Below, piece by piece: positions 40,843 to 45,093 of a stretch of 64,000 nt of DNA (position 1 is the stretch's first letter; every line of letters begins with the position of its first letter). The notes under the pieces were generated by a model. The model did no database searches, was not told the DNA's origin, and saw only the letters and a list, made by a program, of their open reading frames with translations. The stretch spans positions 310,001 to 374,000 of the forward strand of contig JAQWIT010000003.1 of assembly GCA_029248745.1 (NCBI GenBank), read 5' to 3'. Both the position numbers and the translations under genes were made by a program. The DNA comes from Gammaproteobacteria bacterium (GTDB lineage Bacteria; Pseudomonadota; Gammaproteobacteria; Nitrosococcales; Methylophagaceae).

Positions 40843-41295
40843 ATGAGATTAACAACAAAAGGCCGTTACGCTGTCACAGCGATGTTAGATTTAAGTCTAA
40901 ATTATGGTGTTCGTCCTATCACACTCGCCGACATTTCAGATCGACAGGGGATCTCTTTATCGTACCTCGAACAGCTATTTTCTAATTTACGCCGCCAAGG
41001 ACTTGTCAGTAGTTCACGTGGGCCTGGTGGAGGCTATCGCCTAAGCCGTTCAGCAGATGAGGTGACAGTATTGGATATCATTTCTGCTGTTGATGAAAAG
41101 GTGGATACAACTCGTTGTGAAGGCAAAGGCAACTATTCAAATGGGGAACAATGTCTGAGTCATGAAATCTGGCATAGCCTGAGTGAACAAATCAAAATGT
41201 ACTTAGGTGGTATTACCCTAGGTCAGGTTGTAAAGGACCATCAAATGAATAATGGGACCAGTGATAAGGTCATCAAATTTGAGGCAACAGGATAA
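40843..41295 (+). CDS. iscR: Fe-S cluster regulator IscR (Rrf2 family)
   Basis: [17 protein letters not shown]; Cys ligands [13 protein letters not shown]. Confidence 0.95.
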
Positions 41296-41298
41296 AAA

Positions 41299-41625
41299 GT
41301 GATTACCGTAACAGAATCAGCAGCGAACCGAATTAAAGACATGATCGCTAAGCGCGGGTCAGGTGTTGGATTACGCGTGGGCGTGACAGAAAGTGGCTGC
41401 TCAGGATACAAATATGCATTGGATTATGCTGAATCTGTCACTGATGATGATGTTGTAATTGAGCGTGACGATGCCAAAGTGGTTGTTGACCAAAAAAGCA
41501 TGGACATTATTAATGACACGGAATTAGATTTTGTTAGAGATGGACTAAACCAAAGTTTTAAATTCAACAACCCCAACGCAGTATCTGAATGTGGTTGTGG
41601 TGAAAGTTTTAGCATTACAAAATAA
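41299..41625 (+). CDS. iscA: A-type Fe-S carrier (IscA/SufA)
   Basis: VTESGCSGYKYALDYAE; ECGCGESF. Confidence 0.92.
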   Translation: MITVTESAANRIKDMIAKRGSGVGLRVGVTESGCSGYKYALDYAESVTDDDVVIERDDAKVVVDQKSMDIINDTELDFVRDGLNQSFKFNNPNAVSECGCGESFSITK

Positions 41626-41674: not shown

Positions 41675-42976
41675 ATGCAAGATTTAGATAACCTTACTTT
41701 TGATGCTAAACATATCTGGCACCCATACAGCAGTGCCAAACAACCTGGCCAAATTCATGAAGTCATCTCTGCCAAAGGGGTTTACTTAACCCTGAATGAC
41801 GGTAGAAAAGTGATTGATGGTATGTCATCGTGGTGGTCTGCCATTCATGGTTATAATCACCCTGAGTTAAATCAAGCAGCCAAACAGCAAATCGATAATA
41901 TGGCCCATGTCATGTTTGGAGGCTTAACGCATCCTCCTGCCATTGAACTTGCACGAAAATTAATCGATATTACGGCAGCACCATTGCAATATGTCTTCTT
42001 TGCTGATTCAGGCTCAGTGGCAGTTGAAGTCGCTATTAAAATGGCTATTCAATATTGGTTTTCTCAAGGTAAAACACAAAAACAAAAAATATTAACACTT
42101 CGAAATGGCTATCACGGAGATACCTTCGGCGCCATGTCAGTCAGTGACCCTGAAAATGGTATGCACAGTATGTTTGAGCAAGTATTAACCAAACAAGTCT
42201 TTGCTCCAGCACCTGCTTGCCAACGAGATGAAGACTGGCAAGAGAGTGATATCTCAGAATTTGAGGCCTTAATAGAAGCACAGCATGGAGAGTTGGCAGC
42301 GGTCATGCTAGAGCCATTAGTACAAGGTGCGGGTGGTATGCGAGTCTACTGCCCAGAATACCTACGCCAGGTCAGGAAGCTGTGTGATCAATATAACGTG
42401 CTATTAATACTAGATGAAATAGCAACTGCCTTTGGGAGAACAGGGACTTTATTTGCCTATGAACAAGCCGATATATGTCCAGATATTCTTTGCTTAGGCA
42501 AAGCGCTAACGGGGGGCTATTTGACCTTGGCAGCGACATTATGTACGAACAAAGTCGCTAAAGGGATCAGTGCAGATGACAATGGGGTTTTAATGCATGG
42601 CCCGACGTTTATGGCGAACCCTTTGGCTTGCAAGGTAGCATCCGCAAGTTTAGATGTATTACTAGCATCAGATTGGCAAAACCAAGTGAAGCAGATTGGG
42701 CAACAATTAGAGTCTGAATTAAGGGGTTACCAGTCGAATTCGCTAGTGAAAGAAGTCAGAGTGAAAGGGGCAATCGGTATTATTGAACTCCATGACATGA
42801 TATGGGAGCAAATGGCATGGATGCCTAAATTTATTGTTGATCAAGGCGTGTGGATCAGGCCATTCAAGAACCTAATTTATACTATGCCGCCCTATATTAT
42901 TCAGTCTGATGAATTAGGTCAGTTAACCTCAGCTATGGGCAAAATACTACTAGAATTAAAGAGTAGAAGTATTTAA
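41675..42976 (+). CDS. bioA: Adenosylmethionine-8-amino-7-oxononanoate aminotransferase
   Basis: HIWHPYSS, DGMSSWWSAIHGYNHPELN. Confidence 0.95.
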   Translation: MQDLDNLTFDAKHIWHPYSSAKQPGQIHEVISAKGVYLTLNDGRKVIDGMSSWWSAIHGYNHPELNQAAKQQIDNMAHVMFGGLTHPPAIELARKLIDITAAPLQYVFFADSGSVAVEVAIKMAIQYWFSQGKTQKQKILTLRNGYHGDTFGAMSVSDPENGMHSMFEQVLTKQVFAPAPACQRDEDWQESDISEFEALIEAQHGELAAVMLEPLVQGAGGMRVYCPEYLRQVRKLCDQYNVLLILDEIATAFGRTGTLFAYEQADICPDILCLGKALTGGYLTLAATLCTNKVAKGISADDNGVLMHGPTFMANPLACKVASASLDVLLASDWQNQVKQIGQQLESELRGYQSNSLVKEVRVKGAIGIIELHDMIWEQMAWMPKFIVDQGVWIRPFKNLIYTMPPYIIQSDELGQLTSAMGKILLELKSRSI

Positions 42977-43015
42977 ATTGGAGCAGCTCATATATACAGG
43001 AGAAAGGGGAAGGAT

Positions 43016-43303
43016 ATGTCAAACGAAGGTTACCACGAGCCAGTTGACGAACTAAGCCATAAAACAAGGGATGTGCATCGTGCCATTACATCATTGATGG
43101 AAGAGCTAGAGGCCGTCGATTGGTATAACCAACGTGTCAATGCGTGTAAAGGTCCAAAGCTAAAAGCGATCCTGGAACTTAACCGTGATGAAGAAAAAGA
43201 ACATGCAGCGATGGTACTAGAATGGATCCGCCGCCAAGATCAGACTATGGATAAAGAACTGAAAGATTACTTGTTCACGGATAAACCGTTAGCACTCGAT
43301 TAA
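43016..43303 (+). CDS. Encapsulated-ferritin (EncFtn)-like protein
   Basis: HEPVDELSHKTRDVHRAITSLMEELEAVDWYNQRVNACKGPKLKAILELNRDEEKEHAAMVLEWIRRQD...DYLFTDKPL; EncFtn core with E..ExxH residues, no C-terminal targeting extension. Confidence 0.85.
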   Translation: MSNEGYHEPVDELSHKTRDVHRAITSLMEELEAVDWYNQRVNACKGPKLKAILELNRDEEKEHAAMVLEWIRRQDQTMDKELKDYLFTDKPLALD

Positions 43304-43353: not shown

Positions 43354-43977
43354 CTATTGGTATTGAGTGAAATACCATTCAAAGGTTTCATCCTTCCGGG
43401 CATCATAAAGTGTCACTACCTCATAATTTTGCCCATCAAGACGAGTGACACTGTGCTTGATAAACTCTAAGCCATGAAACTCAATAAAAGCATCTCTTTC
43501 AGCGCGATTAATCACTTGAAATGCAGTTTCCAATGATTCGCCATTTCCAGTGAGCCAAACCGCCTCTAACAACTGATTCATCACTGACTCGTGATATTGG
43601 CTTTGAGCGGCATCATCCGACTCAAGCTGACATACCATCGCAGTGTAATGACCATTTAGACTAGCGTAATTCATGGCTAAAAGCTCATCAACAATATCGA
43701 GACAAGTCGTCCAGTCGATAGCTTCTATCGCTTCGAAAGCACCATGAGTCAATGTTTCTTCAGCAATGGCATGTGATTGATTGCGTATCGTTAAAACTAC
43801 AAACTGTCTTAGCTCTGTTATTTTCGTAAGAACTGGCCCAGTCTCAATATCATCAATTAAAGCTAGGTAACGAGCTGCATATTCATTTTGAGCCTGATCG
43901 CTTGGTATTTGAGTTTGTCGTACAGAAGTACAAGATGAAAGTAAACAAACCATAAAAGTAAAAAGAATAGATTTCAT
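43354..43977 (-). CDS. Putative lipoprotein
   Basis: MKSILFTFMVCLLSSCTSVRQ lipobox; internal start preferred over the 44067 ORF start. Confidence 0.7.
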   Translation of the reverse strand: MKSILFTFMVCLLSSCTSVRQTQIPSDQAQNEYAARYLALIDDIETGPVLTKITELRQFVVLTIRNQSHAIAEETLTHGAFEAIEAIDWTTCLDIVDELLAMNYASLNGHYTAMVCQLESDDAAQSQYHESVMNQLLEAVWLTGNGESLETAFQVINRAERDAFIEFHGLEFIKHSVTRLDGQNYEVVTLYDARKDETFEWYFTQYQ

Positions 43978-44382
43978 TGTTAGAAGCTTGTGTTGTAATA
44001 AATAATACCAAAGGCTTAAGAATTTATCCTTTTCGATATAAATTTGTCGTAAATTATATAGCTTCATAACTTAATTGGAATAAGTAATACGGACCCTAAT
44101 GAAAAACATAAGAAAAACCTAGAAGGATTTCAGTTTGCAGGTTTTATCGCTACGATTGGAATATTATTATTAAGTATCGCACTAGAAGCAATTAATGTCT
44201 CAAAGGGTAATGCGTTAATACGTGTGCTTACTAATGAAACAACACCTAAAGCTACGTTGGTAATAGGCGCCGTCATAGTGTGGTGGAGTAAAAGGCGAAC
44301 AGTGTCTTTGATTAAAGATAATGCGGAGATCCGAGCAGCAGACGGCTGAAAGCTTCGTAAGAAAAAGAACAACCTTATTTTC

Positions 44383-45093
44383 TTATAGTGGCCTTCTAGC
44401 CAATTCAACTAACGCCTGCCGAGCTTCCATTGTATCGCTAATGGGCGAATCAAACCGAATACGGTGTAATCGACTATTGACACGTAGATGAAATCCTTCA
44501 CTATCAATTCCCACCAGCTTGGGTAAGTTTTCAGTATCGTAGGCGATATCAAATAAGTCACAATAATGGTTGATTGCATCTTGATGATCGTCATTCATAT
44601 GATCAACCATGCCGGTTTCTTCTTCAAAATGGAACGGATTCGCTTTGAGAAAATCAGCTTTCTCAACCCAGTAAATTTCACCAAAACCACCGATATACCT
44701 CACACGGACACAATCGAGCGTGTAGAAATTGAAATCATGACTTTTATGAAAGCCGCGTGAGTTAGGGTAGAAGCGATAATATCGCTCAGCAACAACATCA
44801 CTATCATTCAATACAGCATCGGCAAGATAAGTGGTGCGCCCAGATGCTTGGCTATCATCAGTGAACGGATCATAGCTAATCAGAGACACTTTGTTATCTG
44901 CTTTGATATTACACGTATGTTGCGCAATGGTGCTGATCAGAATGATGGGACGACCATCGCCATCAAGACAAAAAGGCGTAATCGAACCAAAGGGATAGCC
45001 AGACATATCAATGGATAGGGTACTCAATACACCATTACATTGGCTTTGTAATAAGGCTCTAGCTTGTTGTGCAGCCTGGTCTGTTTTGCTCAT
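44383..45093 (-). CDS. HugZ-like / pyridoxamine 5'-phosphate oxidase family heme-utilisation protein
   Basis: Split-barrel N-terminus with GVLSTLSIDMSGYPFGSITPF; C-terminal VDHMNDDHQDAI motif. Confidence 0.85.
   Translation of the reverse strand: MSKTDQAAQQARALLQSQCNGVLSTLSIDMSGYPFGSITPFCLDGDGRPIILISTIAQHTCNIKADNKVSLISYDPFTDDSQASGRTTYLADAVLNDSDVVAERYYRFYPNSRGFHKSHDFNFYTLDCVRVRYIGGFGEIYWVEKADFLKANPFHFEEETGMVDHMNDDHQDAINHYCDLFDIAYDTENLPKLVGIDSEGFHLRVNSRLHRIRFDSPISDTMEARQALVELARRPL

What the first reader, a model, noticed from the sequence alone, without database searches (positions are those of the whole stretch)
43016..43303. Orphan encapsulated-ferritin (EncFtn) core with no adjacent encapsulin
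The 95 aa protein reads like the EncFtn catalytic domain (MEELEAVDWYNQRVNA...NRDEEKEHAAMVLEWIRR). It stops right after that core, with no C-terminal cargo-loading extension, and the next gene is an unrelated lipoprotein on the opposite strand. EncFtn proteins are normally encoded beside, or fused to, an encapsulin shell gene. A free-standing, tail-less EncFtn downstream of iscR-iscA-bioA would be a shell-independent ferroxidase or one that loads in trans by another route.
Basis: partly seen in the sequence, partly recalled or inferred. Interest (0 to 1): 0.62.

Follow-up and report, generated by a model that had tools for sequence, protein, structure and literature searches.

The report
Tail-less, encapsulin-free EncFtn ferritin gene
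The gene is a genuine small iron-oxidising protein of the encapsulated-ferritin family, but the short form without a shell or targeting tail is already known and is actually the commoner form in related bacteria, so this is an ordinary member with one unusual amino-acid change.

Summary
43016-43303 (+) encodes an intact 95-residue EncFtn protein (Pfam PF22277, E=1.8e-42) with every ferroxidase ligand, no targeting peptide, and no encapsulin shell gene (PF04454) in its 1.73 Mb, 99.99%-complete genome. The 'orphan' reading is not new. The closest solved protein, NE0167 of Nitrosomonas europaea (3k6c), is also 95 residues and tail-less, and a 2024 review calls this class s-FLP. In 274 gammaproteobacterial genomes, 66 of 81 EncFtn loci lie away from any shell. 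Genomes with such genes carry a shell no more often than others (4/66 against 10/208, p=0.75). All 14 shell genomes have their own EncFtn beside the shell. Loading in trans is therefore unlikely for this class.

Two points go beyond the finding. (1) The window copy is the only one of 163 s-FLPs with Leu instead of His at position 55, the counterpart of R. rubrum His57 in the proposed exit/mineralisation site. (2) In 19 of 66 genomes (17 families) the s-FLP gene lies in the aerobic rubrerythrin cluster. I found no paper noting this. It suggests shell-free ferroxidase work in peroxide and iron defence, but this genome lacks that cluster. Verdict: new member of a known kind.

The parts
43016..43303 (+). 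Tail-less EncFtn (s-FLP), 95 aa
   Evidence: PF22277 E=1.8e-42; 3k6c NE0167 E=6.7e-42; AF2 model pLDDT 93.4, best Foldseek hit 3k6c
42998..43013 (+). Shine-Dalgarno-like purine run AGGAGAAAGGGGAAGG before the ATG
   Evidence: sequence read directly
43100..43126 (+). Helix-1 metal residues E29, E30, E32, W36, Y37 (Rru E31, E32, E34, W38, Y39)
   Evidence: E29, E30, E32 and Y37 invariant in 163/163 s-FLPs, W36 in 162/163; roles of the Glu and Tyr residues from PMC5012862
43178..43180 (+). Codon CTT: Leu55 where 162 of 163 s-FLPs and 11 of 11 tailed forms have His (Rru His57, proposed exit/mineralisation site)
   Evidence: role from PMC5012862
43190..43204 (+). Helix-2 residues E59, E60, E62, H63 (Rru E61, E62, E64, H65)
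   Evidence: invariant in 163/163
43277..43300 (+). Short C-terminal end TDKPLALD; the class consensus is T(D/E)KPIAH(K/E/D), and there is no targeting peptide
   Evidence: tail comparison of 130 unique s-FLPs and 11 tailed forms
41675..42976 (+). bioA, 39 bp upstream and same strand; likely co-transcribed
   Evidence: TIGR00508; same order in three congeners
40843..41625 (+). iscR-like Rrf2 regulator and iscA-like A-type Fe-S carrier
   Evidence: PF02082 and PF01521
43312..43356 (+). Terminator-like stem-loop between the convergent genes (only a consensus match, about as many as in shuffles)
43354..44067 (-). DUF4919 lipoprotein-like protein, convergent
   Evidence: PF16266

Best explanation
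The gene encodes a short, shell-independent EncFtn (s-FLP). Two long antiparallel helices pair with a second subunit to make a di-iron ferroxidase centre (E30, E60, H63, Y37, with gate residues E29 and E32), and five such pairs probably form an annular decamer like NE0167. It would oxidise Fe(II) in the cytosol, using O2 or H2O2, and release Fe(III) rather than store it, lowering the free Fe(II) that feeds Fenton chemistry. Fe(III) may pass to other acceptors such as the bacterioferritin that the same genome encodes. Shown here: family, predicted fold, intact ligands, absence of tail and shell, purifying selection, vertical inheritance at a syntenic site. Inferred: decamer, ferroxidase activity, oxidant, role in peroxide/iron defence, hand-over to Bfr. 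The loss of the exit-site histidine (L55) in this species should weaken iron binding on the outer rim but not the ferroxidase centre.
For: Family and closest solved relative. All catalytic residues are retained in a family where they are invariant. AF2 model (pLDDT 93.4) matches 3k6c, 5da5 and 5n5f. No encapsulin in the genome, one EncFtn only. The class-wide distribution is independent of encapsulins, and 49 of 50 named s-FLP genomes have none; the exception, Thiogranum, has a separate tailed EncFtn beside its shell (L156). The tail is of nearly fixed length and lacks any targeting motif in 130 unique relatives. The genome has Bfr with Bfd. Relatives place the gene in the aerobic rubrerythrin cluster in 19 of 66 genomes, and s-FLP and DUF3501 co-occur genome-wide (46/66 against 72/208, p=8e-7, not corrected for kinship). 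A peroxiredoxin gene is the upstream neighbour in L116 and L117.
Against: The eLife study of R. rubrum EncFtn argues that the family cannot store iron without a shell, so a shell-free form needs another acceptor, and none is shown. The window genome has no rubrerythrin (only Coq7) and no DUF3501, so the peroxide-cluster link is indirect for this species. The gene is dispensable in the genus: a 30-residue remnant in G027 at the same locus, and a broken copy in G007.
Confidence: 0.65

Rival explanations
1. It is cargo that loads in trans into an unlinked encapsulin through a cryptic C-terminal signal.
For: The 2024 review leaves open whether the short disordered C-terminus binds a shell. The C-terminal motif KPIAH is conserved in the class.
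Against: No family-1 shell in this genome, in 62 of 66 class genomes with a free EncFtn, or in 49 of 50 named s-FLP genomes. Where a shell exists it already has its own EncFtn beside it. The window copy has even lost the conserved His of the C-terminal motif (L94).
Confidence: 0.03
2. It is chiefly a peroxidase or redox protein like rubrerythrin, with electrons from a partner Fe-S protein, rather than an iron-handling protein.
For: In 19 of 66 class genomes it lies beside DUF3501, typically with RFO (Fe-S oxidoreductase) and often rubrerythrin upstream. Cys44 is conserved in 160/163 s-FLPs but only 4/11 tailed forms.
Against: The ferroxidase and gate residues are the same as in true EncFtn ferroxidases. 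The window genome lacks RBR and DUF3501. No rubredoxin-type or other electron-transfer domain.
Confidence: 0.2
3. It is an iron-loading partner of the resident bacterioferritin: it oxidises Fe(II) outside and passes Fe(III) to Bfr.
For: Bfr and Bfd are encoded in the genome, and a shell-free ferroxidase needs an acceptor.
Against: Bfr normally has its own ferroxidase centre and needs no helper (general knowledge); the two genes are unlinked (contigs C15 and C16).
Confidence: 0.1
4. In this species the gene is on its way to becoming a pseudogene.
For: Unique loss of His55 and loss of the commonly conserved His94; remnants or breaks in G027, G007 and G036, and absence from several near-complete congeners; the genome is among the smaller near-complete ones of the genus.
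Against: The frame is intact, all ferroxidase ligands are kept, dN is about 0.1 with dS near or beyond saturation, and only 3 of 59 strongly conserved positions have changed, rank 15 of 163.
Confidence: 0.1

Closest known systems
NE0167 of Nitrosomonas europaea (PDB 3k6c), the type structure of the 's-FLP' class (PMC11202242)
   Same: Same length (95 aa), same core, no targeting peptide; 76% identity in the structural alignment, TM-score 0.86-0.90
   Different: Different organism; the window protein has Trp36 where NE0167 has Leu, and Leu55 where NE0167 has His
Rru_A0973 EncFtn of Rhodospirillum rubrum (PDB 5da5), tailed cargo (FLP-TP)
   Same: Same fold and ferroxidase residues; E=3.8e-30
   Different: Has a C-terminal extension with a targeting peptide and an encapsulin shell partner; the window protein has neither. 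Rru His57 corresponds to Leu55 here
Aerobic rubrerythrin cluster RBR-RFO-DUF3501 (Cardenas 2016, PMC5114695)
   Same: In 19 of 66 class genomes the s-FLP gene is an added member of this cluster
   Different: The window gene is not in such a cluster and its genome has no RBR or DUF3501

Membership tests
EncFtn-like family (PF22277) | Profile match over the whole domain above the gathering score | tested here: met
   143.4 bits against 27, profile positions 2-85 of 85
EncFtn-like family (PF22277) | Ferroxidase ligands (Rru E32, Y39, E62, H65) and gate residues (E31, E34) | tested here: met
   E30, Y37, E60, H63, E29, E32 present
EncFtn-like family (PF22277) | Outer-rim exit/mineralisation site His57, Glu61, Glu64 (proposed in the literature, not definitional for the family) | tested here: not met
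   Leu55 replaces His; E59 and E62 kept
EncFtn-like family (PF22277) | Two-helix subunit fold | tested here: met
   AF2 helices 15-43, 47-74, 76-86; best match 3k6c
EncFtn-like family (PF22277) | Metal-dependent decamer of dimers with ferroxidase activity | not testable with these tools
   only monomer prediction is available
FLP-TP (tailed encapsulin cargo) | C-terminal targeting peptide (GSL-like) after a linker | tested here: not met
   the protein ends seven residues after YLFT; all 11 shell-adjacent comparators carry a long tail
FLP-TP (tailed encapsulin cargo) | Encapsulin shell gene adjacent or in the genome | tested here: not met
   no PF04454 in the genome, controls rang; PF19307 also not found but no control rang
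s-FLP (short FLP, type 3k6c) | About 95 aa EncFtn domain, short C-terminus, no targeting peptide | tested here: met
   95 aa; 100 of 130 unique relatives are exactly 95 aa
Aerobic rubrerythrin cluster member | Gene adjacent to RBR, RFO or DUF3501 | tested here: not met
   neighbours are bioA and DUF4919; no DUF3501 in the genome, and the only rubrerythrin-family hit is Coq7

The most novel reading that the evidence does not exclude
The tail-less EncFtn lineage is a cytosolic, shell-free arm of peroxide and iron defence that is functionally wired to the aerobic rubrerythrin system (RBR-RFO-DUF3501) and spread free-standing through Pseudomonadota. The window species carries a variant that has lost the outer-rim iron site and therefore passes its Fe(III) on differently, for example directly to bacterioferritin.
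Probability: 0.3. Interest if true: 0.5.

Novelty: new member of a known kind. Interest (0 to 1): 0.3.

Why it matters
The founding EncFtn study treats the protein as something that needs a shell to store iron, and the review literature leaves open whether the short form is encapsulated. The survey here shows that short forms occur with no relation to shells, which makes a direct test of shell-free EncFtn function worthwhile. The recurrent place in the rubrerythrin cluster gives a concrete hypothesis for that function, and the natural His55-to-Leu change is a ready-made probe of the proposed exit site.

Tried and rejected
A tree of 176 sequences (95 columns) is too poorly resolved to say whether the rubrerythrin-cluster placement is ancestral; cluster and free states need at least 17 changes on it, and mean distances to the tailed forms barely differ. 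The test of tailed forms as one clade did not finish. No conserved neighbour links the free-standing copies as a whole. The rubrerythrin-family hit in the own genome proved to be Coq7, not rubrerythrin. The family-2 shell search (PF19307) gave nothing, but no control rang, so it is weak evidence. The promoter scan found no promoter-like site directly before the gene and fewer sites than shuffles. An assembly error as the cause of Leu55 could not be tested: no second assembly of the species was at hand.

Full report
What is there. The ORF at 43016-43303 (+) is real: ATG, 95 codons, TAA, a purine-rich SD-like run before the start, and many stops on the opposite strand of the same stretch. It matches the EncFtn-like Pfam family over the whole domain (143 bits, E=1.8e-42) and NCBIfam TIGR04535 just over its cut-off. 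The closest solved protein is NE0167 of Nitrosomonas europaea (3k6c, E=6.7e-42), itself 95 residues and tail-less, then the tailed EncFtns of R. rubrum and H. ochraceum. The AF2 model (mean pLDDT 93.4) has the two long helices plus a short third one, and its best Foldseek match is again 3k6c, TM-score 0.86-0.90.

Active site. Compared with 163 unique s-FLP sequences, all ferroxidase and gate residues are present: E29, E30, E32, Y37, E59, E60, E62 and H63 are invariant, and W36 is kept in 162. One position stands out. Residue 55 is Leu only here; 162 of 163 s-FLPs and 11 of 11 tailed forms have His. By alignment this is R. rubrum His57, which with Glu61 and Glu64 was proposed as the exit portal and mineralisation site (PMC5012862). 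His94 of the C-terminal KPIAH motif is also lost. The codon is CTT at 43178-43180. An assembly error cannot be excluded. Overall the gene is under strong purifying selection against congeners, dN about 0.1 with dS near or beyond saturation.

Shell. The window genome (1.73 Mb, 20 contigs, 99.99% complete) has no family-1 encapsulin and a single EncFtn gene. A family-2 shell was also not found, but that search had no ringing control. In the order, 36 of 63 genomes have EncFtn and one has a shell (G060), whose EncFtn is tailed and next door. In 274 genomes drawn evenly from the class, 81 EncFtn loci split into 15 beside a shell, covering all 14 shell genomes, and 66 away from any shell. Shell presence is the same in genomes with and without a free EncFtn (4/66 against 10/208, Fisher p=0.75). 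Of 50 named genomes holding close s-FLP relatives only one, Thiogranum, has a shell, with its own tailed EncFtn beside it. The tail classes are cleanly separate: 100 of 130 unique s-FLPs are exactly 95 aa and nearly all lie between 94 and 101 aa, while tailed forms run 116-134 aa with GSL-like ends. So the premise that EncFtn is normally beside a shell does not hold for this subclass, and loading in trans is very unlikely here.

Locus and history. The order queA-trmJ-cysE-iscR-iscA-bioA-sFLP-DUF4919-HugZ-like is largely conserved in three congeners (L197, L200, L205), and the nearest sequence on the tree is the syntenic L037, which is the same contig as L197, so the gene is inherited vertically there. 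In G027 at the same locus only a 30-residue C-terminal remnant is left; copies in congener G007 and same-family genome G036 are frameshifted or broken. The gene is therefore dispensable in some relatives. Contig lengths identify congeners as Methylophaga sp. LH_M6 and Piscirickettsiaceae MAGs; the family name Methylophagaceae is an inference.

Other ferritin-like proteins in the genome. There is one bacterioferritin with a nearby Bfd and Coq7, with no rubrerythrin and no DUF3501. The s-FLP is thus not the only ferritin.

Wider context, a side result. Among 163 unique s-FLP loci, 19 lie beside or within the cluster rubrerythrin, Fe-S oxidoreductase (CCG domain), s-FLP, DUF3501. That set is biased towards close relatives of the window protein. 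In the even class sample 19 of 66 free EncFtn loci, from 17 families, are within 2.5 kb of DUF3501, and the two genes co-occur genome-wide (46/66 against 72/208, odds ratio 4.3, p=8e-7, not corrected for kinship). Cardenas et al. 2016 describe the RBR-RFO-DUF3501 cluster without mentioning an encapsulin-type ferritin (PMC5114695), and searches of the held library found no paper joining the two. This suggests that s-FLPs work in peroxide and iron defence. The window genome lacks the cluster, so this is indirect for it.

Comparison with the known. The 2024 review (PMC11202242) defines s-FLPs as a class, cites Giessen and Silver for their original classification as non-encapsulated, and says it is unclear whether their short C-terminus holds a binding sequence. 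The window protein is a member of that class. It fails the two features of tailed cargo (targeting peptide, shell), both tested. Decamer and activity could not be tested.

Verdict. New member of a known kind; the natural loss of the exit-site histidine and the rubrerythrin-cluster link are the only parts that would interest a specialist.

Noticed in passing
L171:2945-3232(-), L185:3980-4288(+), L187:3986-4288(+), L095:6001-6288(+) and 15 more loci: Tail-less EncFtn genes lie beside or between the Fe-S oxidoreductase (RFO) and DUF3501 genes of the aerobic rubrerythrin cluster; this placement was not found in the literature searched.
   Followed up: partly
window 43178-43180: Leu55 codon CTT where all other 162 s-FLPs compared have His; a natural variant of the proposed iron exit site, or an assembly error.
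   Followed up: partly
L205:5507-5611; L204:1907-2180; L206:5367-5722: Remnant or frameshifted s-FLP copies in two congeners (G027, G007) and a same-family genome (G036), showing repeated loss of the gene.
   Followed up: yes
window 44383-45093 (-): HugZ/HutZ-like haem-utilisation protein (DUF2470 plus CREG barrel, below the NCBIfam equivalog cut-offs) two genes downstream; also conserved near the s-FLP gene in congeners.
   Followed up: partly
L116:815-1414(+), L117:800-1399(+): AhpC/TSA peroxiredoxin gene directly upstream of the s-FLP gene, another peroxide-defence neighbour.
   Followed up: no
s-FLP residue 44 (window 43145-43147): Cys44 is conserved in 160 of 163 s-FLPs but in only 4 of 11 tailed EncFtns; a possible class-specific redox or metal residue.
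   Followed up: no
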